A stretch of DNA of 64,000 bases, taken from assembly GCF_963666525.1 (NCBI RefSeq), contig NZ_OY762905.1:1904001-1968000 (forward strand). The letters are read 5' to 3'. The position numbers and the translations under genes are program-made. The DNA is from an uncultured Cohaesibacter sp. (GTDB taxonomy: Bacteria > Pseudomonadota > Alphaproteobacteria > Rhizobiales > Cohaesibacteraceae). The notes under the pieces were generated by a model. The model did not search any database and had not been told where the DNA came from. It was given only the letters and a program-made list of their open reading frames with translations. This document shows positions 19,724 to 50,497 of the stretch, in pieces (position 1 is the first letter of the stretch; every line of letters begins with the position of its first letter).

Positions 19724-20677
19724 ATGCTGAATTATCTTCCCTCCCTTTCCGCTCTGCGCGCCTTTGAGGCTGCAGCCCGCCATCTCAGCTTCACCAAGGC
19801 GGCCAGCGAGCTGGGTGTCACCCAGAGTGCCATCTCCCGCCAGATGCGCTCAATGGAGGATCTGCTCGGCCTGCGTCTGTTCGAACGCACCGGCACGGGC
19901 CTCGTGCTGACAGAGGCCGGGGCCGTCTATGCCCACAAGATCCGCACCAAGCTGCAGGACATCGAAACGGCAACGCTGGAGCTGCTGGCCTATCGCGGTC
20001 AGGGCGGTGAGTTGACCATCGCCTGCCTGCCGACCCTTGGCGCCCGCTGGCTGGTGCCGCGACTGACCAAATTCACCACGGCCCATCCCGAAATCCTCAT
20101 CCAGATCGTCACCAAGCTCGAACCGTTCGAATTCGCCGGTCTGGACATCGACGCGGCCTTCCATTTCGGCGAAGGCGCCTGGCCCAACGCCCTGACGGAC
20201 GAGCTGATGCCCGAATTTGTGGTGCCCATGGCACACCCCAACCTCCTGGGCGAGCTGAAGGAAGTCGGACTTCAGGAACTGCTGTTGAGGCATCCGCTGC
20301 TGCAAGCCACCTCCCGCCCGTCGCTCTGGTCACACTGGTTCAGCCAGAAGGGCCTGCACCACCCCAACCCCCATGTCGGACCACGCTTTGAGCATTTCCA
20401 CATGGTCATCCGTGCTGCCGCCTCCAAAATGGGCATTGCGGTGCTGCCACGGCTTCTGGCCGAGGAAGAGCTGGCAAGTGGCGAACTGGTCCAGCTTGAT
20501 GATCAGTTGACCCCGTCCAACGGCGACTACTATTTCGTCTATCCGCAGTCCAAGCGCGCCAGCCCCAACTTGCAAACCTTCCGCACATGGGTGATGCGCG
20601 AGGCCCTGAGCACCAAGAAGAAGATGAACAGCCATCTTCTGACAGCCGCCGCCAAGCAGCCGGATCAGGCCGGATAA
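19724..20677 (+). CDS. LysR-type regulator, GcvA-like, adjacent to gcdH
   Basis: A 317-residue LysR regulator of the GcvA type, with its helix-turn-helix in residues 8-65 (LSFTKAASELGVTQSAISRQM) and a periplasmic-binding-like effector domain. It is directly upstream of glutaryl-CoA dehydrogenase on the same strand; regulators of this group beside gcdH in other proteobacteria control glutarate or lysine breakdown, so that role is likely. The start has MLNYLPSLSALRAFEAAARH, the usual N-terminus. Confidence 0.82.
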   Translation: MLNYLPSLSALRAFEAAARHLSFTKAASELGVTQSAISRQMRSMEDLLGLRLFERTGTGLVLTEAGAVYAHKIRTKLQDIETATLELLAYRGQGGELTIACLPTLGARWLVPRLTKFTTAHPEILIQIVTKLEPFEFAGLDIDAAFHFGEGAWPNALTDELMPEFVVPMAHPNLLGELKEVGLQELLLRHPLLQATSRPSLWSHWFSQKGLHHPNPHVGPRFEHFHMVIRAAASKMGIAVLPRLLAEEELASGELVQLDDQLTPSNGDYYFVYPQSKRASPNLQTFRTWVMREALSTKKKMNSHLLTAAAKQPDQAG

Positions 20678-20835
20678 AGGTCCTGTACCCTCCCCGCCTA
20701 TAAAAAAATCTCATGACCGTTTGAAATATCATCGCTTCCAGCGCCCCCCGGCCACAACTACTATTGCTGCAATTGACGCTTGCCTTGACGACGGACACAC
20801 TTCCCGTCTGACAGACAGCAGAGGAGCAATAGCCC

Positions 20836-22023
20836 ATGGGCGCGACACCGGCTTTCACTTGGGATGATCCCTTCCTTTTTCGCCAGCAACTGAGCGAGGA
20901 AGAGCGCATGATCATGGATTCGGCACGCGCCTTTTGCGACGACCGGCTGATGTCCCGCGTGCTTGAGGCAAACCGGCATGAGCGCTTCGATATCGCCATC
21001 ATGCAGGAAATGGGCGAACAGGGATTTCTCGGCCCAACCATCTCGGAAGACTTCGGCTGCGCCGGTGTCAACCATGTCGCCTACGGCCTGATCGCACGGG
21101 AAATCGAGCGCGTCGATTCAGGCTACCGCTCGGCCATGTCCGTGCAGTCCTCGCTGGTCATGCACCCGATCCATGCCTATGGCACGAAGGAGCAGAAACA
21201 GACCTATCTGCCCAAGCTGGCAACCGGCGAGCTGATCGGCTGCTTCGGCCTCACCGAACCCGACCACGGCTCGGACCCCGGTTCGATGATCACCCGCGCA
21301 ACGAGCGTCGATGGTGGCTATGTGCTGTCCGGCGCCAAGATGTGGATCACCAACTCCCCGATCGCCGACATCGCCATCGTCTGGGCCAAGTCCGACGCCC
21401 ACGGCGGCAAGATCAAGGGTTTTATCGTTTCCGCCCGCGCCAAGGGCTTTTCGGCCCCCAAGATCGAGGGCAAGATGAGCCTGAGGGGTTCGACCACCGG
21501 CGAAATCGTACTCGACGATGTCTTTGTCCCCGAAGACCACCTGCTACCCGATGCCGAGGGACTTGCCGGTCCGTTCGGCTGTCTCAACAAGGCCCGCTAC
21601 GGCATCGCCTGGGGCGTGTTGGGTGCGGCTGAATTCTGCTGGCACGCAGCCCGCCAATATACCCTCGACCGCAAGCAGTTCGGCCGCCCGCTGGCCCAGA
21701 CCCAGCTCGTCCAGCTCAAGCTCGCCGACATGCAGACCGAGATCACCCTTGGCTTGCAGGCGGCTCTGCGCGTCGGGCGGCTTATGGATGAGGGCAACTG
21801 CCCGGTCGAGAATGTCTCGCTGATCAAGCGCAACAACGCCGGCAAGGCGCTGGCCATCGCCCGCACCGCTCGCGACATGCATGGCGGCAACGGCATCTCC
21901 GACGAGTTTCACATCATGCGCCACATGGTCAATCTGGAAAGCGTGAACACCTATGAGGGAACCCATGACATCCACGCTCTGATCCTCGGGCGCGCCCAGA
22001 CTGGCCTGCAGGCTTTCTTCTAG
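20836..22023 (+). CDS. gcdH: Glutaryl-CoA dehydrogenase
   Basis: A 395-residue FAD acyl-CoA dehydrogenase that oxidises and decarboxylates glutaryl-CoA to crotonyl-CoA in lysine and glutarate degradation. It shows the GcdH-specific [18 protein letters not shown] (near 97-114), the FAD-binding [15 protein letters not shown] and the catalytic Glu374 in [10 protein letters not shown]. Length is normal. It sits 158 bp after a LysR gene and belongs to the same catabolic theme as amaB at the left end. Confidence 0.94.
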
Positions 22024-38247: not shown

Positions 38248-38416
38248 AAAATCGCGTCTCTCAGCAAACCGCATCTGACAATTTGCGCAATTGGCCCTGT
38301 CATTTCGAGCAATTTCTGACGATTTTTATAAAAGATCGCCCCTTTTTCTTGCCGCGCCTCTCTCGTTTATTGCCTCCCAGATCAACCAGCCCAGGAATCA
38401 GGGAGCAAGAAACACC

Positions 38417-39412
38417 ATGCCAGCCACTGCTCAGGATGCAACGGAAGATACCCCGCCAGTCATTCATCTCATCGGCGTTCCGGTGCAGGATGGCACCCAC
38501 GAGAAGGGTTGCCTGATGGGGCCGGATGCCTTGCGTACCGCCGGAATCCGGGAAACTCTGGAGGGGCTTGGCTTTTCCTGCATCGACCACGGCAACCTCC
38601 AGCCCCGCACCAAGGGCGAGCAGGGAGCCCCGACCATCGCGCCTGTGGGCAAGGCCAACCATTTTGACCGGATCTCCAGTTGGACCCGCACGCTGGCGGA
38701 CATCTCGTATCAGTTGGCCCGGACGGGTTTTCCCGTGTTCATGGGTGGTGACCATTCCCTCGCCATGGGGTCGGTTGCCGGTGTTGCCCGTCATGCAGCA
38801 GAACAGGGACGGGAGCTGTTCGTGCTCTGGCTTGATGCCCACACCGACTTCAACACCCCCTCGACTACGGAAAGCGGCAATATGCATGGCATGTCCGTCG
38901 CCGCGTTCTGCGGCCTGCCCGAACTGGCTGGCCTCTATGAGCCGTCGCTGGAACACCCGATCAACCCGGCCAATGTGCACATGATGGGCATCCGCAGCAT
39001 CGACAACAAGGAGCGCGAGCTGCTGCGCCAGCATCACGTCAAGATCAACGACATGCGCGTTCTTGACGAGCTCGGCGTCATCCGCCCGCTGATGGAGCTG
39101 ATCGATGAGGTAAAATCGAAGAACGCCATGCTCCATGTGAGCCTTGACGTCGATTTCCTTGATCCGGACATCGCACCCGCGGTCGGCACTACGGTGCCGG
39201 GGGGTGCGACCCTGCGCGAGGCCCATCTCATCATGGAACTGCTGCATGAAAGCCGACTGGTCACCTCGCTTGACCTTGTCGAGCTCAATCCTTTCCTCGA
39301 TCATCGCGGCAAGACGGCGGATATTCTCAGGGATCTGACCGCATCGCTGTTCGGACGGACGATCTTTGACAGGCCAACCCGGCGCCCAGGCCCGCGTCAC
39401 GGCAGCATCTAG
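38417..39412 (+). CDS. rocF: Arginase
   Basis: A 331-residue ureohydrolase that converts arginine to ornithine and urea using two Mn(II) ions. Metal ligands are in GGDHS (about 114-118), LDAHTDFN (about 140-147) and SLDVDFLDP (about 241-249), with the later Glu in DLVELNP. The DAHTDFN spacing with Asn is that of true arginases rather than agmatinases. The ATG at 38417 gives the family N-terminus; the longer frame from 38291 runs through the promoter region. Nearby amino-acid catabolic genes fit nitrogen scavenging. Confidence 0.9.
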   Translation: MPATAQDATEDTPPVIHLIGVPVQDGTHEKGCLMGPDALRTAGIRETLEGLGFSCIDHGNLQPRTKGEQGAPTIAPVGKANHFDRISSWTRTLADISYQLARTGFPVFMGGDHSLAMGSVAGVARHAAEQGRELFVLWLDAHTDFNTPSTTESGNMHGMSVAAFCGLPELAGLYEPSLEHPINPANVHMMGIRSIDNKERELLRQHHVKINDMRVLDELGVIRPLMELIDEVKSKNAMLHVSLDVDFLDPDIAPAVGTTVPGGATLREAHLIMELLHESRLVTSLDLVELNPFLDHRGKTADILRDLTASLFGRTIFDRPTRRPGPRHGSI

Positions 39413-39618
39413 CCTGGCTCGGCTGCAGATTTGCTATCCCTTTAGGTAATTCCCCACGGACATAACGTCCTGATCGCGTTGATTAACTAGACAAAAATCA
39501 TTTCATGCCTAAAACTGGGAACAACCACAATGGCCATTCATGCCAAATGGGATAGCGGGCTCCCCCGGCCCTCAAGGCGCATGATGAACAGGCCACAACG
39601 GCATGAGGAAACGCAAGC

Positions 39619-40047
39619 ATGCAAGACAATGAACACAAGGACGACGATGCCCCGCTCCGTATCGCACTGGTGGCCCATGATGCGAAGAAGGATGACATTG
39701 TCGATTGGGTTGGCAAGCATCTCAATCTTCTGAGAAAGGCGACCTTTGTCGGCACCGGCACCACCGGCGGACGCATCAAGCAGGCCTTTCCCGAGCTGGA
39801 TATCACCCCGCTCTTCTCCGGCCCGCTGGGCGGTGACCAGCAGATCGGCGCAATGATCGCCGAAGGCAAGCTCGACGGCCTCATCTTCTTTGTCGATCCG
39901 CTCTCTCCCATGCCCCATGATGTGGACGTGAAAGCGCTCAACCGTCTGGCCGTGGTCTATGACCTGCCGATGGCCCAGAGCCGCCGCTCCGCCAACATGA
40001 TCATCCGTGGCATGATGATGGAAAAATACGGCACCATCGACTTCTGA
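39619..40047 (+). CDS. mgsA: Methylglyoxal synthase
   Basis: A 142-residue enzyme that eliminates phosphate from dihydroxyacetone phosphate to give methylglyoxal, a bypass of lower glycolysis. Residues equivalent to the E. coli active site are present: His20 (VAHD), Asp73 (GPLGGDQQ), and His100 and Asp103 in [15 protein letters not shown]. Length matches. It is a monocistronic gene with its own terminator. It does not share an operon with arginase. Confidence 0.93.
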
Positions 40048-40140: not shown

Positions 40141-40575
40141 TCAGCTTTCCCGCACCACATAGACCGAACATTTGGAATGGCGCACCACGCGCGCCGCGTT
40201 CGGCCCAATAAGCATTTCCCGCAGGTCCGGCTTGTGGGCGCCGATGACGATGAGGTCGGCATCATCCTGCAGAGCTGTTTCCAGAATCTCTTCATAGATC
40301 GATCCCGACGCCACAATGTGGCGCAGATCTGCAACATGGTCGTCTCCGAGAATGTCGGCGACCCGCTTTTTCAGAGCAACCTTTGCATCCTGCACGGCCT
40401 GCTTCTGAAAATTGTCGTCGAAATAGGAACTCACCAGAGAGATGCTGAAATTGGGAACGACCGTGACGATGTCCAGTCGCGCCCCTTCCAGCCTGGCAAT
40501 CTTGTTTGCCGTCTTCAGCACAGGCGCATCATTCTCCTGGCTAATATCCAGCGCGCATAGAACCGTATTGATCAT
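40141..40575 (-). CDS. Universal stress protein (UspA family), TRAP-linked
   Basis: A 144-residue Usp with a Rossmann-like fold; the C-terminal ATP-binding signature G-(2x)-G-(9x)-G-like region is present as GAHKPDLREMLIGPNAARVV. It overlaps the upstream TRAP permease gene by four bases (ATGA), so it is made with the transporter. In other bacteria such Usp proteins (e.g. TeaD) bind ATP and tune TRAP uptake, which is the likely role here. Confidence 0.9.
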   Translation of the reverse strand: MINTVLCALDISQENDAPVLKTANKIARLEGARLDIVTVVPNFSISLVSSYFDDNFQKQAVQDAKVALKKRVADILGDDHVADLRHIVASGSIYEEILETALQDDADLIVIGAHKPDLREMLIGPNAARVVRHSKCSVYVVRES

Positions 40576-43184
40576 GCTGGCACCTCCTCCTCGCGCCTGA
40601 CACGTGCCCGCTGCAGCATATAGACCAGCCCCAGCAGCAAAAGCCCCGGAATATAGATCAAATCCTTCGGCAACTGATCGGCCTTGACTTCGGCATGCGT
40701 GATCTGCACCGGCTCATCCGCATAGAAGTCAAACCCGCCCAGCGTTTCAAAGAATGGTGTTCCCGGCATCGGCTCATCCAGTTTGGCCACACCACCCTCG
40801 TCGAGAATGGTCAAACCCTGAGCCGCCAGACGGGCTTCCCCGCCCTGTTCATTGCCGGCGGTCAGCACCAGAGTGGTTTCCTTGATGGAGCCGGTGTCGA
40901 AATCCGGACCGGAAATATTGAGCCTGATCTCATGCCCGGCCCCGATCCTGCCAAAGGCATCGGAGACCTTCGCCGGTTCAACCACCTCGAAGGGAGGCTG
41001 GATCCGGTTCATGAAGAAGTCCGGACGGAACAGGATGAAGGCAATCAGCACAAGCGCCACGCTCTCGTAGAGACGGCTCTTGGTCACGAACTGCCCCATC
41101 GTCCCGGCGGTAAAAGCCAGCACGGCGATGACCCCGATGACGGCAACCAGTAGCCCCTGATACCAGGTGACATCATACCAGATGAGATCGGTATTGAAGA
41201 TGAAGACGAAGGGCAACGCCACTGTTCGGAGCGAATAGAAGAAGGCGGTGAACCCCGTCTTGATCGCATCGCCCCCTGACACCGCAGCCGCGGCAAAGGA
41301 GGCCAGCCCCACAGGCGGCGTCACGTCCGCCATGATGCCGAAATAGAACACGAACAGATGGACGGCGATCAGCGGCACAACAAGGCCGGACTGCGCCCCC
41401 AGCTGCACGACCACACCAGCCATGAGCGAGGACACGACGATATAGTTCGCCGTGGTGGGAAGCCCCATGCCGAGCACCAGCGACAGCATCGCCACGAAGA
41501 TCAGCATCAGCACCAGATTGCCGCCGGAGATCAGCTCCACCAGATCGGCCATCACCTGACCGATGCCGGTGAGCGTCACCGTACCCACGATCACACCGGC
41601 GGTTGCCGTGGCAAGGCCGATGCCGATCATGTTGCGCGAACCATCGATCATGCCAATGCCAAGGTCATTGACCCCTGCATTGAAGGCATTCACATAGTCG
41701 TTTTCGCCACGGAACATCGCCTTCAGCGGCCGTTGGGTGAGCAGGATGACGAACAGCAGTGCCGTCGCCCAGAAGGCCGAAAGCCCCGGAGACTTCTGCT
41801 CGATCATCAGGAAATAGACCAGCACCACGATCGGCAGCAGATAGTAGAGCCCGGTCTTGTAGATGTCCTTGACCTCGGGCAGCACAATATCCTTGGCATT
41901 CGGATCATCGGGCACCAGATCCTCAACCGAGGCCGCCAGCTTGAGCAGCAGCAGATAGGCGACAAACACCAGCGCCGCCAGAATCCAGCTGGCCTCTTCC
42001 GGAACCATGGCCGTGATCCAGCCAATCGGATATTTGATGCCATAGCAGATGGCGGCAAAGCCGATGAAGAACAGGAACATGCCGATGATGGTGCGCATGG
42101 TGGAAACGGCCTTGGTGCCGATGGTCGGCATGTTGCGTTTCACCGCTTCCAGATGAACGATATAGACAAGCGCCACATAGGACAGAATGGCTGGCAGGAA
42201 GGCATGGGTGATCACTTCCATGTAGGAAATGCCCACATATTCCACCATCAGGAAGGCAGCTGCCCCCATCACCGGCGGCATGATCTGGCCGTTCACCGAA
42301 GACGCCACCTCGACAGACCCAGCCTGTTCGGAGGTGAAACCCACCCGCTTCATCAGCGGAATGGTGAAGGTGCCGGTGGTCACAACGTTGGCAATCGACG
42401 AACCGGAGATAAGCCCCGTGGCTGCCGAGCCTACGACGGCAGCCTTGGCCGGCCCGCCCTTCAGATGGCCGAGCGCGGCAAAGGCCATCTTGATGAAATA
42501 GTTGCCCGCACCGGCCTTGTCGAGCAAGGCACCGAACAGCACGAACAGGAACACGAATTTGGTCGAAACACCGAGCGCAATACCGAACACGCCCTCGGAC
42601 GTGATCCACATGTGACTCATGGCCTTTTTCAGCGAGGCCCCTTTCCAGCGAATGACTTCCGGTACCCAGTCGGAAGCACCGAAGAACACATAGATCAGAA
42701 AGATGACCGCGATGGTCGCCATGGCAGGGCCAAGCGCCCGTCGCGCGGCCTCGAACAGCAGCAGCAGACCAGCCAGCGCGACCCACTTGTCAACATCGTC
42801 GGCCAGACCGCCATTGTTGACGACCTTGTCATAGAAGAACAGGCCATAGAGCGCGATGAAGGTTCCGGCCAGCGCGAAGATCCAGTCCTGAATCGGAATA
42901 TGGTGGCGCGGACTGCTTTTCAGTGCGGGATAGGCCATGTAGGCAAGAAAAATGGCAAAGGCCAGATGAACCTGACGCGAGTTGTTGATCAGGTCGGACG
43001 GCAGGACATAGTTGGAAATCGGTGACGCCAGCAGAACCTGAAAGGCAGCCCAGACAAGGGCGACAATGGCCAAAAAGGTTCCGATCGGACCGACCGGATT
43101 TCGTGCTCCCGCATCCGTTGAGGCCACCAGCTCCTGAAGTTCCTCTTCAGAAAGCGGGCGCCCAGACGCTTTTTTCTGTGACAT
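40572..43184 (-). CDS. TRAP transporter fused permease (4TM+12TM)
   Basis: An 870-residue fused small and large membrane subunit of a TAXI-type TRAP transporter. The N-terminal small-subunit-like helices (about 30-120) lead into the large-subunit DctM-like part (GALLDKAGAGNYFIKMA, GSSIANVVTTGTFTIPLMK, PPVMGAAAFLMVEY). Near the C-terminus a soluble segment of about 120 residues (near 700-840), resembling the DUF3394 extension of this group, is followed by one last helix. It drives sodium- or proton-coupled uptake of the compound bound by the TAXI protein encoded upstream. The ATG at 43184 has GGGG about 11 bases upstream. Confidence 0.93.
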   Translation of the reverse strand: MSQKKASGRPLSEEELQELVASTDAGARNPVGPIGTFLAIVALVWAAFQVLLASPISNYVLPSDLINNSRQVHLAFAIFLAYMAYPALKSSPRHHIPIQDWIFALAGTFIALYGLFFYDKVVNNGGLADDVDKWVALAGLLLLFEAARRALGPAMATIAVIFLIYVFFGASDWVPEVIRWKGASLKKAMSHMWITSEGVFGIALGVSTKFVFLFVLFGALLDKAGAGNYFIKMAFAALGHLKGGPAKAAVVGSAATGLISGSSIANVVTTGTFTIPLMKRVGFTSEQAGSVEVASSVNGQIMPPVMGAAAFLMVEYVGISYMEVITHAFLPAILSYVALVYIVHLEAVKRNMPTIGTKAVSTMRTIIGMFLFFIGFAAICYGIKYPIGWITAMVPEEASWILAALVFVAYLLLLKLAASVEDLVPDDPNAKDIVLPEVKDIYKTGLYYLLPIVVLVYFLMIEQKSPGLSAFWATALLFVILLTQRPLKAMFRGENDYVNAFNAGVNDLGIGMIDGSRNMIGIGLATATAGVIVGTVTLTGIGQVMADLVELISGGNLVLMLIFVAMLSLVLGMGLPTTANYIVVSSLMAGVVVQLGAQSGLVVPLIAVHLFVFYFGIMADVTPPVGLASFAAAAVSGGDAIKTGFTAFFYSLRTVALPFVFIFNTDLIWYDVTWYQGLLVAVIGVIAVLAFTAGTMGQFVTKSRLYESVALVLIAFILFRPDFFMNRIQPPFEVVEPAKVSDAFGRIGAGHEIRLNISGPDFDTGSIKETTLVLTAGNEQGGEARLAAQGLTILDEGGVAKLDEPMPGTPFFETLGGFDFYADEPVQITHAEVKADQLPKDLIYIPGLLLLGLVYMLQRARVRREEEVPA

Positions 43185-43293
43185 AGATTGCAGCCCCCTG
43201 CCATCGCTCCAAAGCGCGATTTCAATCAAGCCGAAACCGTCAGACAGTTTCTACAGCACTGATCGGCGATAGCGTTATTATTCATTATGGAAA

Positions 43294-43364
43294 GCCGGAC
43301 CCGACTGAGCCGGGTCCGGTCGCAGCAGCGATTGAGCGCTTCGGGACAGTCCCCCCGAAGCGCG
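43294..43364 (-). other. Two consecutive hairpins between the TAXI binding protein and TRAP permease genes
   Basis: The first stem is CCGGACCC/GGGTCCGG around 43295-43319. The second is GCGCTTCGGG/CCCGAAGCGC around 43336-43363. Neither has a T tract. They occupy most of the 194-bp gap between binding protein and permease; 3'-end stabilisation of the binding-protein message, giving it excess over the permease, is the likely effect. Confidence 0.7.
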
Positions 43365-43378
43365 AAAAGACCGGGGAC

Positions 43379-44344
43379 TTACATCCAGCCCTTTTCCTTG
43401 TAATATTTCACTGCACCCGGATGCAGAGGAGCGGACAGGCCGTCCTTGATCATTTCTTCCGGCTTCAGGTGAGCGAAAGCGGGATGCAGCTTCTTGAAGG
43501 CATCAAAGTTTTCAAACACGGATTTCACAACGGTGTAGACAGCGTCGTCGGAAACCTTGGCAGAGGTCACCAGAGTGGCGCCAACACCGAAGGTCTTCAC
43601 GTCATCCGGGTTGCCACGATACATGCCGCCGGGAATGGTGGCAGAACGATAGTAGGCATTGTCGGAAATGAGTTTTTCAACAGCTGGGCCGTCAACAGCA
43701 ACCAGCACCGAATCACAGGCCGTGGTGGCTTCCTGAATGGAACCGGACGGATGGCCGACGGTGTAGACCATGGCATCGATTTGGTTGTCACACAGGGCTG
43801 CAGACTGTTCAGCAGCTTTGAGCTCCGTTGCCAGAGCAAAATCGGCATTGGTCCACCCGAGGGCTTCCATCAGCACTTCCATGGTGCCACGCTGACCGGA
43901 CCCAGGGTTACCGATATTGACGCGCTTACCCTTGAGGTCGGCAAAATTTTTCACGCCGGCGTCAGCACGGGCAACAACGGTGAACGGTTCCGGATGGATG
44001 GAGAAAACGGCGCGAAGATCTTCGAACGGGCCTTTGTCCTCGAACTTGGATGTGCCGTGATAGGCATGATACTGCCAGTCGGACTGGGCCACACCGAACT
44101 GCAGCTCACCGTCACGAATGGTGTTGATGTTGTAGACCGAGCCGCCGGTTGATTCGACCGAGCAGCGGATGCCGTGTTCCTTGCGACCCTTGTTGACCAG
44201 ACGACAAATAGCGCCACCGGTTGGATAATAAACGCCGGTTACACCGCCGGTACCGATGGAAATGAAGCTTTCGGCAAAGGCAGCCTGAGAAAAGCTCAGA
44301 CCTGCAGCCAAGGCAGCTGCTGTAACGGTCAATTTCTTCAACAT
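43379..44344 (-). CDS. TAXI-family TRAP substrate-binding protein
   Basis: A 321-residue periplasmic binding protein with a signal peptide of about 24 residues (cleavage after AFA). The mature part begins [20 protein letters not shown], the hallmark of the TAXI (TRAP-associated extracytoplasmic immunogenic) family. It captures the substrate for the fused permease. Known TAXI ligands are glutamate and other small acids; here the adjoining aminotransferase and BKACE genes suggest an amino-acid-like compound. It is 42 bp downstream of the rpiR gene and probably co-transcribed. Confidence 0.92.
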
Positions 44345-44386
44345 GAAGTTCTCCCTGAGTTGATGGATATGTAAATCCAGATTTGT

Positions 44387-45247
44387 TCAATCCCAGAACT
44401 CGCCATATTGGCGGTTCCGGTTTTCCACCTCTTCAATCCTGGCGCGAGCACTATCCCCCGCTCTAGCAACCAGCATTCCTACAATTGTTTCAATTAGCAC
44501 AAGCGTTGCGGCATAAGAAGAAAAGAATTGTGGACTCTCTGTCGGCACGATGAAACTGGCCGATGCACGGGATAACGCGGGGCAGGCGATATCATCGGTG
44601 ATTACAAGCACATAAGCGCCGGCGTCAGCCGCCATCTCGGCAGCAACGATCGCCCGTCGGGCATAGGGTGCCATGGTCAGGACGACAACCACGTCCTTGT
44701 CATTGAGCCCCACCATCGCCGAGCTGAGGGAGGCCCCCATACGCCCGATCACCTTCCAGTTGTCGGCAAAATAGCGGGCCAGATAGCCAAAATACTCCAT
44801 GAAGCCGGTGGAACTGAAGGCACCGAACAGCAGCACTTGCCGGGCGCTGTTCAATTGTTCGACCACGTCGACAAGCCGCTCCTGATTGAGATCGCGTTCC
44901 ATGCGCCCGAGATTTTCGAGACTGGCCGAAGACTGCTGCTCGAAGAATGAACGCGCCCCGTCATCGGCCCCATTGCGCACAAGCAGGCTGGCCCGCTCGG
45001 AAAAGGACAGCGCCTGCCGCCCCATCCGGGCCCGGCACACATCACGCATCTCTTCATAACTGGCAAAGCCAAGCGCCTGCGACAGGCGGGTGAAGGTGGA
45101 AGGCGCCAATCCTGCCATGGCGGATACGGTCCGCAGGGAGTGGGTCGCGACATCGATTTCATGATCGACCACGAAATCGGCGGCCTGCTTCAAGCGCTCG
45201 CTCAACTGGCTGTATTGGCCAGAAATCCTGTCCTCGATCGACTGCAT
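44387..45247 (-). CDS. RpiR/MurR-family transcriptional regulator
   Basis: A 286-residue regulator with an N-terminal HTH-6 domain (about 1-78, VSAMAGLAPSTFTRLSQALGF) and a C-terminal SIS domain (about 120-260). SIS domains bind phosphosugars in many members, but RpiR regulators of amino acid or osmolyte genes are also known. It heads the minus-strand TRAP operon and faces the aminotransferase gene, so it probably controls both. The ATG at 45247 is used; a TTG three codons earlier is possible. Confidence 0.88.
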   Translation of the reverse strand: MQSIEDRISGQYSQLSERLKQAADFVVDHEIDVATHSLRTVSAMAGLAPSTFTRLSQALGFASYEEMRDVCRARMGRQALSFSERASLLVRNGADDGARSFFEQQSSASLENLGRMERDLNQERLVDVVEQLNSARQVLLFGAFSSTGFMEYFGYLARYFADNWKVIGRMGASLSSAMVGLNDKDVVVVLTMAPYARRAIVAAEMAADAGAYVLVITDDIACPALSRASASFIVPTESPQFFSSYAATLVLIETIVGMLVARAGDSARARIEEVENRNRQYGEFWD

Positions 45248-45452
45248 GCCCTGCAACTGGCTCCATCAAAAGTCGCATGTCCAGACACTAAAATTTCAAT
45301 TGTTTTAAAGAAAGTCAATAGTTGAAACAAATGTTTCTTTGATATATACCTCAGCCCTTGGAACGATCCGGGCGAGCTCCGCCCGGCATCTTGAAATCGT
45401 CCCTTGAAATCGTTGCTGCGGATCCTTTTCCGCCCTATCAGCAGGCACGCCC
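45248..45452. promoter_or_regulatory. Divergent promoter region with candidate RpiR operator
   Basis: An AT-rich 205-bp intergenic stretch. GAAAC-AAAT-GTTTC at 45324-45337 is a perfect inverted repeat within a longer TTGAAAC/GTTTC context. A related TTTCAATTG word lies about 30 bp to its left near 45294-45302. RpiR-family sites often contain TGAAA/TTTCA half sites, so this is the probable switch for both the TRAP and the aminotransferase-BKACE operons. Confidence 0.55.
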
Positions 45453-46775
45453 ATGTCCCACATCTTCCCTCGCCACACCAAATCCAATCTCCCAACTGTC
45501 GATCACGCAAATGGCGTCTATCTCTATGACACCGAAGGAAAATGCTATCTGGATGGATCGGGAGGGGCCGCGGTATCCTGCCTTGGTCATGGCGATCAGG
45601 ACGTCATCAACGCCATCAAGCAGCAGCTGGATGCCGTTCCCTTCGCCCACACCAGTTTCTTCACCTCGAAGCCGGCCGAAGCACTGGCCGACAAGCTGAT
45701 CGCGCACGCCCCCGAAGGCCTTGAGCGCGTCTATCTGGTGTCCGGCGGCTCGGAAGCCATCGAATCCGCCATCAAGCTGGCCCGCCAGTATTTTCTGGAA
45801 ATCGGCCAGCCACAGCGACGCCATATCATCGCCCGTCGCCAGAGCTATCACGGCAACACCCTTGGCGCGCTGGCAACCGGTGGCAATCTGTGGCGACGCG
45901 AGCCCTTCGCGCCTCTGATGATCGAGACCAGCCATATCTCGCCCTGCTATGAATATCGCGACCGCAAGGAAGGCGAGAGCGCCTTTGACTATGGCCAGCG
46001 GGTTGCCAATGAGCTGGAAACCGAAATCCAGCGCATCGGCGCAGAGAATGTCATGGCCTTCTTCGCCGAACCGGTGGTCGGCGCGACGGCAGGGGCTCTG
46101 CCGCCGGTCGAGGGCTATTTCAAGCGCATTCGCGAAATCTGCAACAACTACGGCATCCTTCTGGTGCTTGATGAAGTCATGTGCGGCATGGGCAGAACAG
46201 GCACACTGTTTGCCTGTGAGCAGGACGGCATTGCACCGGACATCCTGACCACAGCCAAGGGCCTTGGCGCGGGCTATCAGCCGATCGGAGCCATGCTCTG
46301 CACCGGCAAGATCTATGAGGCCATCGAAAGCGGCACCGGCTTTTTCCAGCATGGCCACACCTATATCGGCCACCCGACGGCAGCAGCGGCCGCTCTGGCA
46401 GTCCTGACCAAGCTCACGGATGGCGGCATGGTTGAACGGGCCCGGGAAACTGGCAAAAAGGTAAGGGCAGCACTGGAGACAGCTTTCAGTGCCCATCCCC
46501 ATGTCGGTGACATCCGTGGCCGCGGCATGTTTCTCGGCATCGAGTTTGTCGAGGATAAGGCGAGCAAGAAGCCGTTCGACCCCGCTCTGGCCGTCGCCAA
46601 GCATCTCAAGAAGGCAGCTTTCGATGCCGGTCTCATCTGCTACCCGATGAGCGGCACGATCGACGGCAGGTTCGGCGACCACATCCTCCTCGCTCCCCCC
46701 TTCATCTATGAAGACAGCCATATCGAGGAACTGGTTGCCAAGCTGAAGATCGCCATCGACAAGGTGCTGCCATGA
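45453..46775 (+). CDS. Class III pyridoxal-phosphate aminotransferase
   Basis: A 440-residue omega- or beta-amino-acid type aminotransferase. It has the glycine-rich PLP phosphate region (SGGSEAIESAIKLAR), the cofactor Asp in LVLDEVMCGMGRTG, and the Schiff-base Lys269 in TTAKGLGAGYQP. Class III enzymes act on amino groups away from the carboxylate as well as on beta-amino acids. Overlap of four bases with the next gene, a BKACE enzyme using beta-keto acids, suggests the product here is a beta-keto acid. It is divergent from rpiR. Confidence 0.87.
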   Translation: MSHIFPRHTKSNLPTVDHANGVYLYDTEGKCYLDGSGGAAVSCLGHGDQDVINAIKQQLDAVPFAHTSFFTSKPAEALADKLIAHAPEGLERVYLVSGGSEAIESAIKLARQYFLEIGQPQRRHIIARRQSYHGNTLGALATGGNLWRREPFAPLMIETSHISPCYEYRDRKEGESAFDYGQRVANELETEIQRIGAENVMAFFAEPVVGATAGALPPVEGYFKRIREICNNYGILLVLDEVMCGMGRTGTLFACEQDGIAPDILTTAKGLGAGYQPIGAMLCTGKIYEAIESGTGFFQHGHTYIGHPTAAAAALAVLTKLTDGGMVERARETGKKVRAALETAFSAHPHVGDIRGRGMFLGIEFVEDKASKKPFDPALAVAKHLKKAAFDAGLICYPMSGTIDGRFGDHILLAPPFIYEDSHIEELVAKLKIAIDKVLP

Positions 46776-47575
46776 CGGCACCGATGGCGTTGGCGCCGCT
46801 TCCGGCGATCATGATCGCCCCCAATGGCGCACGTAAGGGCAAGGCGGATCACCCCGCCCTGCCGGTTACCATCGAGGAGACCGTTGCCACGGCCATCGCC
46901 TGCCAGAAAGCGGGCGCCGATGGCATCCACGCCCATGTGCGGGATGCCGACGGCAGGCATAGTCTTGATGCGGGGCTATACCGGGAGCTGCTCGCAGAAC
47001 TGACGCGACAGACGCCCGACCTGTACGCCCAGATCACCACCGAGGCCGTGGGCCAATATAGCCCGAGCGAGCAAAGAGCCGTGGTGGAAGCGGTCGCACC
47101 ATCGGCGGTGTCCATTTCCGTGCGGGAAATGCTGAGCGATGGCGAAACGCCAGACATCAGGCGATTCTATCACGAACAGGCGGAAAAGGGCGTTGCCATC
47201 CAGCACATCCTTTACAGCAGGGAGGAAGTCGCGCTTCTCACCGATCTCTGCCAGAGGGGCATCATTCCCCATGGGGCCTTGCAATTGCTTTTCGTCCTTG
47301 GCCGCTACACCGAGGGGCAGGTGTCTTCACCGGAAGACCTCCTCCCCTTCGTTTCGGGCAAGCAGAGGCTGGAAGCGCAGTTGCAGACAACAGTGGACTG
47401 GGCCTGCTGTGCCTTCGGCGCCAGAGAAAACGCCTGTCTGCTGAAGGCCGAGAGCCTTGGTGGCAAGGTCCGCATCGGCTTCGAGAACAACATGCTCAAC
47501 GCCGATGGCTCGCTGGCCAACGACAATGCGGAACGGGTGTCCGACCTCATCCGGTCCAGGGCCGAACGACTTTGA
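46772..47575 (+). CDS. BKACE-family beta-keto acid cleavage enzyme (DUF849)
   Basis: A 267-residue TIM-barrel enzyme of the beta-keto acid cleavage enzyme family, of which 3-keto-5-aminohexanoate cleavage enzyme (Kce) is the founder. IMIAPNGARKGKADHPALP at the N-terminus is diagnostic. Metal ligands equivalent to those of Kce appear as His53 and His55 (HAHVRD) and Glu238 (RIGFENNM). The family transfers a two-carbon unit from acetyl-CoA, giving acetoacetate and a new CoA ester. Its ATGA overlap with the aminotransferase gene implies one pathway. It is somewhat shorter than many relatives. Confidence 0.88.
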   Translation: MTAPMALAPLPAIMIAPNGARKGKADHPALPVTIEETVATAIACQKAGADGIHAHVRDADGRHSLDAGLYRELLAELTRQTPDLYAQITTEAVGQYSPSEQRAVVEAVAPSAVSISVREMLSDGETPDIRRFYHEQAEKGVAIQHILYSREEVALLTDLCQRGIIPHGALQLLFVLGRYTEGQVSSPEDLLPFVSGKQRLEAQLQTTVDWACCAFGARENACLLKAESLGGKVRIGFENNMLNADGSLANDNAERVSDLIRSRAERL

Positions 47576-47689
47576 CACTTCCTTTACCATAACAAGAAAA
47601 CAAGGCTCCACCGCCACAGCGACAAAGTTTGCTCAACCTTTCTTTTCTAGAGTGACCAGAAATGGTTCCTCTAGAAAATCGGGCTTTTG

Positions 47690-50497
47690 ATGAAGCGGGT
47701 CTCCTTCTTTCGCATCGCGACGCTGCTGGTCGTCTTTCTCTGCTGCGCTCTGGCGCGCGAGAGCGGCTGGTTTGTTCGTCTGGACAACGGCATCGCGGAA
47801 CAGCGCATGGCCATGCAGACCCGGCAGGCGTCGGGCAGAATTGTGTTGCTCGAGATCGACAACAAGAGCCTGACGTCCATCGGCGTCTGGCCATGGAACC
47901 GCTCCATCTATGCAGACATCATCCGCAAGAGCTTTAACGCCGGAGCCGAGGAACTGGCCTTCGACATCGACTTTTCCTCCAAATCCATAACCGAAGAGGA
48001 TCAGGCCTTTGCCGAGGCGCTGGACAGTGCCGCCGGTCCAGTGACCCTTGCCGTCTTCCAGCAGTTTGCCACTGCCCGCATGGAAGCCGATGCCCTGCGC
48101 TTCAATCGCCCCGTCGAGGCTTTGTCCAACAGCGCCTGGCTTGCCACTGTCAACGTCATCGCCGATCCGGACGGATTTGTGCGATCCTTTCCCCTGGCCC
48201 AATCCATCGATGGCGAGCTGTTCCCCTCGCTTACCAGCACACTGGGTGGACTGCAGCAGATCGAAGCGACAAGCCAGTTGGTCAACTTCAACATTGATCC
48301 TGCCAGCATCCCGACCTATTCCGTCATCGATCTGTTGGACGGAACCCTTGCCCCGGATGCCTTGAAAGGCCGCAAGGTTCTTGTCGGCGCGGGCGCGGCA
48401 GAACTGCGTGACACGATGGCCGTGCCGGTGTTTGGCGTCATGAGCGGCCCCAAGCTGCAGATCCTCGCCGCAGAGAATCTGATACAGGGTACCAACCTGC
48501 AGAGAGCGCCACATAGCTGGGTCTATGTCATCGGCACTCTAGCCATGCTGCCTACGCTGTTCCTACTGTTGTTTGGCCCCTTCAACACCTACAGCCGCAT
48601 CGCGGGTCTGTTGTTGCTGGCAACTGGTATCGAGTTTCTCGGCTATCGTCTTTATGCCGACGAGCACATCCTGCTGGACACGGGTATCCTGCTGGCCACA
48701 CTGCTGGCGACCGGCGTCATCGTCACGCTGACCGACGTCAGCATCAAGTCCATCCTGCTCAATCTCTCTCACAGGCATGGCAAAAGCATCTCGGACCTGC
48801 TCGACACCATCGTCAAGGACAGTCTGACCGGCATCGTCATTGTCGGCGCAGATGGCCGGATCATCAGCATAAGCCAACAGGCCGGCGCCATGCTGGCCCG
48901 CTTTGGCTACGAGGCAAAAAAGGGCGACCTCTTTGCCAGCGCCCTGCCATGGGAATTCGGCCGAAGGATAGCGGACGGTCTCAAAGGCAGCACGGCCACG
49001 AAACCCTCTGCCAATTACCAGACCCTGTCCATCATGCGCAATGAAGGCACGCGCTATTTCGAATACTCGATCACGCCGTCGCTGATTGCACCGGATGGCA
49101 AAGAGCAGAAGGAAGAGGACAAGGTGATTACCCTGCTCTTCCAAGACATTACCGATGCCTACCTTGAGCAGATCCGGCTGGCCTACGCTGCCGACCATGA
49201 TCCTCTGACCGAGCTGTTCAACCTCAATGGCTTCTGCAACCAGATCGACGGCATGGTCACCTATACGACCGAAGGCTCAGGCAGGAAAGGACTGGTGTTT
49301 GCTTGCCAGGCCAGGCGGCTTGAAAAGATCAGCCAGATGCTCGGGCCTGACTATTGCGACATTCTGCTGCAACAGATCGGCCTGGCGCTGACCGACTGTG
49401 CCCGGTTCGATGCTGTCGGGTGCACGGATCACAAACGCTTTCTGCTCTTCAAACTGCACGCTGGAGAAGAGGACATAGCCGGGTTGACCGCGACCATCCA
49501 TCAATGCCTCGACAGGCCCTATGACGTGCGCGGCCACAGCATTATTGTAGGCGGGCAGGTCGGCGTAGCCCGATTTGATCCGGACACCATGCAAACCGCT
49601 GCAGATCTGGCTGAAGCAGCCAGCATTGCGCTCGACCGATCTCTTGAAACCGGGGAGCGTACGCTGTTCTATTCACCAGCCCTTGCCGCAGACGTCCATC
49701 TGCAGCGCCTGTTGGAACAGGAAATCGTAAGCGCCTTTGAACATAGCGAATTCGAGCTCCACTACCAGCCGCAGGTCGACCTGAAAAGCAGAAAGATCAT
49801 CGGCTGCGAGGCCCTTGCGCGCTGGAACCATCCCGAACGGGGGCTCATCAGGCCGGACCATTTCATTCCGATCCTTGAGGAAACCGGCAAAATAGTTGAC
49901 CTCGGGCGCTGGATCATGCAGACCGCCTGTCGGGAAGCCATGTCATGGCCGGAGCCCGTCACCGTTGCCGTCAATGTGTCCGCCGTCCAGTTTCAGCGCT
50001 CCGATATCCTGCAGGACATCGAACAGGCCCTTCAGTCATCCGGCCTGCCGCGTCATCGATTGCATATCGAAATCACGGAATCTCTGTTTATCGCAGAAAC
50101 GGCTGCAATCATCGAACAGCTCAACGCGATCAGAAGCCATGGCATCAAGATTGCGCTCGACGACTTCGGCACCGGCTATTCGTCCCTGAGCTACATCCAC
50201 CAGTTCCCCCTCGACAAGATCAAGATCGACCGGGCCTTCGTCAAGGACCTGCCCTATTCAACCGATTCCCTGGCAGTCATCAACGCGGTCACAGCGCTGG
50301 CCCGCGGTTTTGACATGCAGATCATCGCCGAAGGCATGGAGACGGAAGAACAGGCAGAGATCCTCCGCCTTGCTGGATGCCATATCGGACAGGGCTACTA
50401 TTTCGGCAGACCAGTGACCTGCGGGGAATTTGCCTCTGCGCTCAAGAAGCTGTCCATGGATGTCGACGAGACCACCGAATTGAGACAGGCAATATAG
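47690..50497 (+). CDS. CHASE2-PAS-GGDEF(degenerate)-EAL membrane phosphodiesterase
   Basis: A 935-residue sensor. An N-terminal helix (about 7-22) is followed by a periplasmic CHASE2 domain (about 30-280), three membrane helices (about 290-365), a PAS domain (about 385-500), a GGDEF-type domain (about 510-670) and an EAL domain (about 690-920). The GGDEF site reads TDHKRF, so it cannot be a normal cyclase. The EAL domain keeps EALARW, EITES, DDFGTGYSS, KIDRAFV and AEGMET, so cyclic-di-GMP hydrolysis is expected. The ATG at 47690 is preferred to a TTG one codon before; the ribosome site is weak. Confidence 0.9.
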   Translation: MKRVSFFRIATLLVVFLCCALARESGWFVRLDNGIAEQRMAMQTRQASGRIVLLEIDNKSLTSIGVWPWNRSIYADIIRKSFNAGAEELAFDIDFSSKSITEEDQAFAEALDSAAGPVTLAVFQQFATARMEADALRFNRPVEALSNSAWLATVNVIADPDGFVRSFPLAQSIDGELFPSLTSTLGGLQQIEATSQLVNFNIDPASIPTYSVIDLLDGTLAPDALKGRKVLVGAGAAELRDTMAVPVFGVMSGPKLQILAAENLIQGTNLQRAPHSWVYVIGTLAMLPTLFLLLFGPFNTYSRIAGLLLLATGIEFLGYRLYADEHILLDTGILLATLLATGVIVTLTDVSIKSILLNLSHRHGKSISDLLDTIVKDSLTGIVIVGADGRIISISQQAGAMLARFGYEAKKGDLFASALPWEFGRRIADGLKGSTATKPSANYQTLSIMRNEGTRYFEYSITPSLIAPDGKEQKEEDKVITLLFQDITDAYLEQIRLAYAADHDPLTELFNLNGFCNQIDGMVTYTTEGSGRKGLVFACQARRLEKISQMLGPDYCDILLQQIGLALTDCARFDAVGCTDHKRFLLFKLHAGEEDIAGLTATIHQCLDRPYDVRGHSIIVGGQVGVARFDPDTMQTAADLAEAASIALDRSLETGERTLFYSPALAADVHLQRLLEQEIVSAFEHSEFELHYQPQVDLKSRKIIGCEALARWNHPERGLIRPDHFIPILEETGKIVDLGRWIMQTACREAMSWPEPVTVAVNVSAVQFQRSDILQDIEQALQSSGLPRHRLHIEITESLFIAETAAIIEQLNAIRSHGIKIALDDFGTGYSSLSYIHQFPLDKIKIDRAFVKDLPYSTDSLAVINAVTALARGFDMQIIAEGMETEEQAEILRLAGCHIGQGYYFGRPVTCGEFASALKKLSMDVDETTELRQAI

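What the first reader, a model, noticed from the sequence alone, without database searches (positions are those of the whole stretch)
40141..47575. Candidate undescribed uptake-plus-catabolism unit: TAXI-TRAP + Usp + RpiR facing aminotransferase + BKACE
Seen: an operon of RpiR regulator, TAXI binding protein, fused TRAP permease and Usp on one strand, and an ATGA-coupled class III aminotransferase and BKACE enzyme on the other, all diverging from one 205-bp region with a palindrome. Known: BKACE enzymes cleave beta-keto acids with acetyl-CoA. Inference: the transporter imports a beta-amino acid, the aminotransferase makes the beta-keto acid, and BKACE cleaves it to acetoacetate plus a CoA ester. 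beta-Glutamate (giving 3-oxoglutarate) or another beta-amino acid osmolyte is a possible substrate; none is proven.
Basis: partly seen in the sequence, partly recalled or inferred. Interest (0 to 1): 0.8.

Follow-up and report, generated by a model that had tools for sequence, protein, structure and literature searches.

The report
Probable beta-glutamate uptake and breakdown genes
A set of six neighbouring genes in a marine bacterium, kept together in many relatives, most likely imports beta-glutamate (a salt-protecting compound abundant in marine archaea) and turns it into acetoacetate, a breakdown route that can be tested directly.

Summary
The six genes are as described, and the unit is real. 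It keeps its layout in 16 of 17 genus mates (the 17th genome is incomplete). Other families build it as one operon, TAXI>TRAP>Usp>AMT>DUF849. In 295 genomes of one family TAXI and AMT mostly occur together (169 both, 8 and 11 alone, 107 neither). (1) The TAXI pocket matches glutamate-binding TAXI proteins, and the orthologous operon of what is very probably Cereibacter sphaeroides carries a published Na+-dependent L-glutamate transporter. (2) GlnHPQ-type transporters replace TAXI-TRAP in some relatives. (3) The 'BKACE' keeps Zn ligands but lacks the Glu and Asp of acetyl-CoA-dependent enzymes (91 of 91 relatives). This type is 7 of 64 in a DUF849 sample, nearly uniform, like published group G6 (70 of 725), which does not cleave but decarboxylates beta-ketoglutarate. 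Best reading: beta-glutamate -> 3-oxoglutarate (aminotransferase) -> acetoacetate + CO2. No step is proven. The main threat: the unit may serve L-glutamate. G6 membership is inferred, not looked up. About half of the AMT-bearing genomes lack this DUF849.

The parts
40141..40575 (-). Universal stress protein (Usp), last gene of the transporter operon; overlaps the TRAP gene by ATGA
   Evidence: Pfam Usp 87.3 bits; kept beside TRAP in relatives; TRAP-Usp association noted in PMC11574862
40572..43190 (-). Fused TRAP permease with C-terminal DUF3394 domain (ATG start; TTG start at 43229 possible)
   Evidence: TIGR02123 626.7 bits (cut-off 320.65), PF11874 at residues 680-865
43379..44344 (-). TAXI solute-binding protein with a glutamate-type pocket
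   Evidence: TIGR02122 379.8 bits; gap-free alignment to 8s4j; pocket residues
44387..45247 (-). RpiR-type regulator (HTH + SIS); TTG start at 45256 possible
   Evidence: SIS 28.2 bits (over cut-off), HTH_6 25.3 bits (under cut-off 28.3)
45324..45337 (.). Palindrome GAAACAAATGTTTC inside a conserved block, candidate RpiR operator
   Evidence: GAAACA(A/T)ATGTTTC in 12 of 13 sequences compared, one changed base in the 13th, while flanks diverge; binding not tested
45453..46775 (+). Class III (PLP) aminotransferase
   Evidence: PRK07483 753.4 bits, cut-off 485; Aminotran_3 319.7 bits
46772..47575 (+). DUF849 protein of the Zn+/Ile146/Asn239 type, probable 3-oxoglutarate decarboxylase
   Evidence: PF05853 181.3 bits; active-site comparison

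Best explanation
A scavenging unit for beta-glutamate (3-aminoglutarate). The TAXI protein captures it and the TRAP permease imports it with Na+ (inferred from pocket identity and the C. sphaeroides orthologue). The class III aminotransferase moves its amino group to a 2-oxo acid, giving 3-oxoglutarate (inferred from enzyme class and context). The DUF849 protein, using its Zn site, decarboxylates 3-oxoglutarate to acetoacetate and CO2, without acetyl-CoA (inferred from residue pattern and the published G6 group). Acetoacetate can enter metabolism through CoA transferases; the genome has three matches to a family that includes them (shown; their substrates are not known). RpiR controls both operons from the shared region with a conserved palindrome (inferred). 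Usp probably tunes the transporter (known association only). In some relatives GlnHPQ with a C45 hydrolase may feed beta-glutamine into the same two enzymes (inferred).
For: Unit: same layout in 16 of 17 genus mates (no DUF849 match in the 17th, 64% complete) and in L050 of the same family; one-operon layout in other families. Of 90 full-length DUF849 orthologues taken from 112 stretches, 62 have AMT directly beside them, 40 of these 62 with TAXI in the same stretch (a few loci are in both sets). In 295 genomes TAXI x AMT = 169/8/11/107 and DUF849 x AMT = 85/5/95/110; TAXI and AMT within 10 kb in 79 of 119 genomes with printed coordinates, DUF849 and AMT within 2.2 kb in 64 of 77. Ligand: of 13 pocket residues of glutamate-bound VcGluP, 10 are identical in the window TAXI; M201 is Thr as in T. 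thermophilus GluBP, D157 is Gln, S40 is Gly; the pocket Gln, His and Glu are kept in 37 of 37 TAXI sequences aligned. GlnH, GlnP and GlnQ over equivalog cut-offs in a TAXI-less version. Chemistry: in 91 of 91 subfamily members (window included; 87 distinct over the stretch compared) Zn ligands, Arg and Tyr are kept, E143 is I (90) or L (1) and D231 is N (91). This type is 7 of 64 sampled DUF849 loci, nearly uniform (6 of 61 outside the own genome), like G6, 70 of 725, with sixteen beta-ketoglutarate activity cases and decarboxylation. In 1 of 20 AMT-TAXI loci without this DUF849, a 3-oxoadipate-type BKACE (488.6 bits, cut-off 350) sits directly downstream of AMT, also an enzyme for a beta-keto dicarboxylate. 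Substrate supply: beta-glutamate at 730 mM in Nitrosopumilus.
Against: The orthologous transporter in what is very probably C. sphaeroides supports growth on L-glutamate, and VcGluP prefers L-glutamate; beta-glutamate was not among the ligands in the passages that I read. 95 of 180 AMT-bearing genomes lack this DUF849 type at E <= 1e-35, and 19 of 20 TAXI-AMT loci chosen for lacking a linked one have no DUF849 match in the stretch at all. G6 membership is inferred; I could not read Bastard et al. 2014 or supplementary tables. R21 and E91 are both near-invariant in the subfamily, so R21 need not bind a carboxylate. Earlier work took the Arg, which is kept here, as the base. Related DUF849 proteins sit by TctABC-like or 3-hydroxyacyl-CoA-dehydrogenase-like genes without AMT, so the subfamily may have several substrates.
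Confidence: 0.5

Rival explanations
1. The unit serves L-glutamate (and L-glutamine in the GlnHPQ version): TAXI-TRAP imports L-glutamate, AMT uses it as amino donor or converts it to 2-oxoglutarate, and the DUF849 protein has an unknown accessory reaction.
For: C. sphaeroides rsp_1412-1413 deletion loses Na+-dependent growth on L-glutamate and is complemented; the orthologous operon contains Usp, AMT and DUF849; pocket nearly identical to VcGluP; GlnHPQ replacement; many units lack DUF849.
Against: Gives no beta-keto acid for a DUF849 enzyme; class III aminotransferases mostly act on amino groups away from the alpha carbon (recalled); L-glutamate use would need no dedicated aminotransferase (inference).
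Confidence: 0.25
2. One reading: a beta-amino acid is transaminated and the DUF849 protein cleaves the beta-keto acid with acetyl-CoA to acetoacetate plus a CoA ester (malonyl-CoA if 3-oxoglutarate).
For: Pfam places the protein in BKACE; Zn ligands, R226 and Y145 equivalents kept; a true 3-oxoadipate-type BKACE takes its place in one genome; earlier work proposed the Arg as base.
Against: E143/E171 replaced by Ile or Leu and D231 by Asn in 91 of 91 subfamily members while 47 of 64 sampled DUF849 loci keep both; scores far below the cut-offs of the four BKACE-type NCBIfam models matched.
Confidence: 0.13
3. The substrate is another glutamate-like beta-amino acid, for example beta-glutamine or an N-methylated or N-acylated beta-glutamate, handled by the same two enzymes.
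For: C45 hydrolase beside GlnHPQ; in Granulosicoccus L071 a Rieske oxygenase and a DAO/GcvT fusion flank AMT.
Against: The TAXI version, as in the window, has neither a C45 hydrolase nor demethylase genes beside it.
Confidence: 0.1

Closest known systems
C. sphaeroides rsp_1412-1413-3804-3803-3802 operon (PMC12632250, passages seen)
   Same: Very probably the same unit: TAXI, fused TRAP, then three close genes which in L190 are Usp, AMT and DUF849
   Different: One-strand layout, RpiR only 29% identical to the window's; the paper assigns L-glutamate uptake and, in the passages I saw, does not name the three downstream proteins
VcGluPQM glutamate TAXI-TRAP of Vibrio cholerae (PMC11574862, Results parts 1-2 of 3 and Discussion part 1 of 2 read)
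   Same: Close TAXI homologue, same pocket, Usp downstream, C-terminal extension of the permease
   Different: No AMT or DUF849 mentioned beside it in the parts read; S40, D157 and M201 are G, Q, T in the window
DUF849 group G6 (Bastard et al. 2014, not held; as reported in PMC4922564, DUF849 section read)
   Same: Non-cleaving DUF849 type, sharply defined active site, about a tenth of the family
   Different: Membership inferred from residues and frequency; the original member list was not available
BKACE / Kce (2y7f) and BKACE15 (8rip)
   Same: Zn-binding family, Zn ligands, Arg and Tyr
   Different: Catalytic Glu and Asp replaced by Ile and Asn
YodT-type and other class III aminotransferases of beta-amino acid pathways (recalled)
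   Same: Enzyme class
   Different: Substrate untested; best PDB match 3i4j is titled only 'Aminotransferase, class III'

Membership tests
TAXI-TRAP glutamate transporter (VcGluPQM type) | TAXI binding protein plus fused TRAP permease, family scores over cut-off | tested here: met
   TIGR02122 379.8 against 84.35; TIGR02123 626.7 against 320.65
TAXI-TRAP glutamate transporter (VcGluPQM type) | Key ligand residues Tyr45 and Gln93 (VcGluP numbering) | tested here: met
   Y39 and Q87 in the window; Q in 37 of 37 aligned, Y in 35 of the 36 that cover it
TAXI-TRAP glutamate transporter (VcGluPQM type) | Binds glutamate or an isomer with high affinity | not testable with these tools
   needs a binding assay
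BKACE, acetyl-CoA-dependent (Kce type) | Zn ligands His46, His48, Glu230 | tested here: met
   H53, H55, E238; 91 of 91 in the subfamily
BKACE, acetyl-CoA-dependent (Kce type) | Catalytic Glu143 (BKACE15 E171) and Asp231 | tested here: not met
   Ile146 and Asn239; I in 90 and L in 1 of 91, N in 91 of 91. Y145 of Kce = Y173 of BKACE15, E171 and R254 of BKACE15; the Kce numbers E143, R226 and D231 are recalled and placed by the alignment
DUF849 group G6 (beta-ketoglutarate decarboxylation) | Sharply defined non-canonical active-site cluster, about a tenth of DUF849 | tested here: inconclusive
   7 of 64 sampled loci, 5 with one signature and 2 one residue off; G6 is 70 of 725; sequences of G6 not seen
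DUF849 group G6 (beta-ketoglutarate decarboxylation) | Decarboxylates beta-ketoglutarate | not testable with these tools
   needs an enzyme assay
Class III aminotransferase | Full-length Aminotran_3 match | tested here: met
   319.7 bits over residues 12-434
Class III aminotransferase | Activity on a beta-amino acid | not testable with these tools
   needs an enzyme assay

The most novel reading that the evidence does not exclude
A dedicated, widespread route by which marine Alphaproteobacteria eat beta-glutamate and beta-glutamine, the solutes of ammonia-oxidising archaea and methanogens. It has interchangeable transporters (TAXI-TRAP or GlnHPQ plus a C45 hydrolase), a version with demethylating enzymes, and a DUF849 enzyme that has changed from acetyl-CoA cleavage to plain decarboxylation.
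Probability: 0.4. Interest if true: 0.8.

Novelty: new variant of a known kind. Interest (0 to 1): 0.6.

Why it matters
Beta-glutamate was the most abundant identified metabolite in the ammonia-oxidising archaeon Nitrosopumilus maritimus (730 mM intracellular) and was more abundant at depth than at the surface in two ocean depth profiles (PMC8269262, passages). It is also a known solute of methanogens and hardly turns over inside them (PMC1224877, passages). In four searches of the held library no title or abstract start listed described its breakdown by bacteria; only 20 of 179, 15 of 590, 13 of 13 and 15 of 38 papers were listed, and most subscription journals are not held. If the reading is right, it names genes that return this pool to the carbon and nitrogen cycles, gives a role to the non-cleaving DUF849 enzymes, and reinterprets a published L-glutamate transporter operon.

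Tried and rejected
Chance neighbourhood: rejected by repeated rebuilding of the unit in other layouts and by co-occurrence. Relatedness of genomes was not corrected for, so the Fisher values (8.8e-57, 5.0e-17, 2.7e-15) overstate independence; the genome searches also score only the best few candidates per genome.

Lysine-fermentation-like 3-keto-5-aminohexanoate cleavage (the name that databases give): rejected; score 96.8 against a cut-off of 382 and changed active site.

A single replacement enzyme in units without this DUF849: I fetched 20 loci chosen because TAXI and AMT are linked there without it. All 20 have TAXI, TRAP, Usp and AMT; only L226 has a DUF849, of the 3-oxoadipate type. A CMD-like and an ABC-ATPase-like cluster (named by eye) recur with 4 and 5 members without a steady position.

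R21 as a proven carboxylate binder: dropped, because R21 and E91 are near-invariant also in members without AMT. R178 follows AMT context only weakly: 60 of 62 with adjacent AMT, but also 17 of 26 without.

Acetoacetyl-CoA synthetase in the genome: no match over cut-off. Structure prediction was not run, because coordinates could not be inspected afterwards. The promoter scan found no promoter-like site in the divergent region.

Rows left out of counts: tblastn and BLASTP matches covering under 40-50% of the query (80% for the DUF849 set); 22 of 112 stretches that gave no usable DUF849 ORF, including ORFs of 420 aa or more; AMT matches under 45% identity; 9 of 73 DUF849 rows, short or broken pieces, 4 of the 16 genus loci, rows not printed (147 of 177 TAXI genomes and 149 of 180 AMT genomes were used).

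Full report
1. What is there. The divergent region is 205 bp with the ATG start of RpiR. It holds the palindrome GAAACAAATGTTTC (45324-45337), intact in 12 of 13 sequences compared (window plus 12 of 16 genus loci) while the flanks differ. The window lies in a 5.18-Mb single-contig genome.

2. The unit is conserved. Of 61 genomes searched among relatives, own included, 33 have a DUF849 match at 1e-20 or better; of 17 genus mates 16 do, the other being 64% complete. In these 16 (L034-L049) the six genes keep order and orientation, with TAXI identities of 82-100%, and so they do in L050 of the same family. In L053 and L054 of other families they lie on one strand, TAXI>TRAP>Usp>AMT>DUF849. From the two sets (112 stretches) 90 full-length DUF849 proteins were taken: 62 have AMT directly beside them, 2 have it near, 26 have none; of the 62, 40 also have TAXI and 3 GlnH in the stretch (a few loci are in both sets, and short contigs cut some neighbourhoods). 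In 295 genomes of the family of G062 (Thalassovita litoralis, L086), TAXI was found in 177, AMT in 180 and this DUF849 in 90; TAXI x AMT 169/8/11/107, DUF849 x AMT 85/5/95/110, DUF849 x TAXI 83/7/94/111. Where coordinates of both were printed, TAXI and AMT lie within 10 kb in 79 of 119 genomes, DUF849 and AMT within 2.2 kb in 64 of 77, DUF849 and TAXI within 10 kb in 36 of 68. The core is therefore TAXI-TRAP plus AMT, with DUF849 a frequent partner of AMT.

3. What the transporter carries. The window TAXI aligns without gaps to the glutamate-bound V. cholerae protein VcGluP (8s4j; residues from PMC11574862, Results parts 1-2 of 3 and Discussion part 1 of 2). Of the 13 positions compared, 10 are identical; S40 is Gly, D157 is Gln, and M201 is Thr, as it is in the T. 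thermophilus protein. The Gln93, His123 and Glu125 equivalents are kept in 37 of 37 TAXI sequences from these loci. The permease carries a C-terminal DUF3394, which I take to be the 'claw' extension described for VcGluQM (inference). In C. sphaeroides, deletion of rsp_1412-1413 loses Na+-dependent growth on L-glutamate and complementation restores it (PMC12632250, passages). Genome G109, with a 943,018-base contig, is very probably this organism. Its locus L190 reads RpiR / TAXI>TRAP>Usp>AMT>DUF849 with gaps of 21, 4 and 40 bp for the last three junctions against the published 5-41 bp. So rsp_3804-3802 are most likely Usp, AMT and DUF849. In Paracoccus pantotrophus plasmid pPAN2 (L188, annotated), TAXI-TRAP is absent from the stretch and GlnH, GlnP and GlnQ score over their equivalog cut-offs (390.9/303, 356.6/303, 422.4/379), with a C45 hydrolase and an RpiR. 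GlnH, GlnP and C45 matches are also seen in L070, L076, L078, L084, L111, L134, L135 and, without AMT, in L198. Two unrelated transporters thus point to a glutamate- or glutamine-like ligand.

4. What the DUF849 protein does. Kce and three other solved family members aligned over this part (3chv, 3no5, 3fa5) keep a Glu two residues before the active-site Tyr/Phe, and an Asp after the Zn-binding Glu. PMC11961710 (passages) proposes the Glu (E171 in BKACE15) as catalytic base and cites earlier work for the Arg. The window protein has Ile146 and Asn239; in 91 subfamily members, window included, position 146 is I in 90 and L in 1, 239 is N in 91, and Zn ligands, Arg and Tyr are kept in 91. The own-genome paralogue L001, a 3,5-dioxohexanoate-type BKACE by NCBIfam (513 bits, cut-off 430), keeps Glu and Asp. 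In 120 genomes spread over the phylum, own included, 29 had DUF849. Of the 64 loci classified (9 short or broken rows left out), 47 are canonical, 7 are of the window type with an almost uniform signature, 7 keep Zn ligands but have other changes, and 3 have lost ligands or are fragments; without the own genome the window type is 6 of 61. PMC4922564 (DUF849 section read) reports from Bastard et al. [quoted passage not shown] The window type resembles G6 in frequency and uniformity, and keeps the Zn that a beta-keto acid decarboxylase could use. This is inference: the member lists were not available. In genome G159 the place directly downstream of AMT is taken by an enzyme over the cut-off for 3-oxoadipate:acetyl-CoA acetyltransferase (1 of 20 such loci), which suggests that AMT makes a beta-keto dicarboxylate there.

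5. Mechanism. The compound that is an isomer of glutamate, carries its amino group where class III aminotransferases usually act (recalled), and gives 3-oxoglutarate on transamination is beta-glutamate. I propose uptake by TAXI-TRAP, transamination to 3-oxoglutarate, and decarboxylation to acetoacetate, activated by CoA transferases (three matches over cut-off to a family that includes them; no acetoacetyl-CoA synthetase over cut-off). Because 3-oxoglutarate also loses CO2 by itself (recalled), units without the DUF849 gene might still work, slower; this would fit the 95 AMT genomes that lack it.

6. Against. The published phenotype is for L-glutamate, and VcGluP prefers L-glutamate (Kd 0.065 uM). 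Beta-glutamate was not among the ligands in the parts that I read. The rival that the whole unit serves L-glutamate stands at 0.25. Other contexts of the DUF849 subfamily (beside TctABC-like genes, named by eye, in L113/L132; beside 3-hydroxyacyl-CoA-dehydrogenase-like proteins in L115/L122) show that it may serve more than one route, though 3-oxoglutarate could be common to them.

7. Known or new. Each part belongs to a known family. The combined pathway did not appear in the listings of the searches made, which cover a library without most subscription journals and in several cases list only part of the matches. Beta-glutamate and beta-glutamine are established solutes of methanogens (PMC1224877, passages), and beta-glutamate reaches 730 mM in Nitrosopumilus maritimus (PMC8269262, passages), so a bacterial consumer is to be expected.

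Noticed in passing
L071:919-8704 and L100:3851-6966: Granulosicoccus version: in L071 a Rieske oxygenase (GbcA-like, below cut-off), AMT, a DAO/GcvT fusion, RpiR, DUF849 and an amino-acid-type binding protein; in L100 AMT, RpiR and DUF849. It suggests an N-methylated form of the substrate.
   Followed up: partly
L188:6420-12741: Paracoccus pantotrophus plasmid version with RpiR, C45 hydrolase and GlnQPH facing AMT and DUF849.
   Followed up: yes
L003:1501-2322 (G000:C1:3433958-3434779): Third DUF849 paralogue of the same genome has Ser in place of both Zn-binding His by alignment, so it is unlikely to be a normal BKACE.
   Followed up: no
L190:11197-14076: In the held assembly of the probable C. 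sphaeroides genome the TRAP permease reading frame appears to change near L190:12014-12062; sequencing error or real.
   Followed up: no
L072:8121-10762 and L098:8697-10780: TAXI faces DUF849 with no AMT match in the stretch; in L072 an XRE-cupin regulator stands between them.
   Followed up: no
window 38291-40047 and 47687-50497: Arginase and methylglyoxal synthase (each in 14 of 16 genus loci) and a large protein with EAL-type sequence by eye (13 of 16) flank the unit.
   Followed up: no
window 19724-22023: LysR-type gene followed by an acyl-CoA-dehydrogenase-like gene that by eye resembles glutaryl-CoA dehydrogenase; not tested.
   Followed up: no
L113:5712-9823 and L132:5731-9863: DUF849 relatives with Asp in place of Arg178 lie next to tricarboxylate-type transporter genes (by eye) and a beta-propeller protein.
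   Followed up: partly
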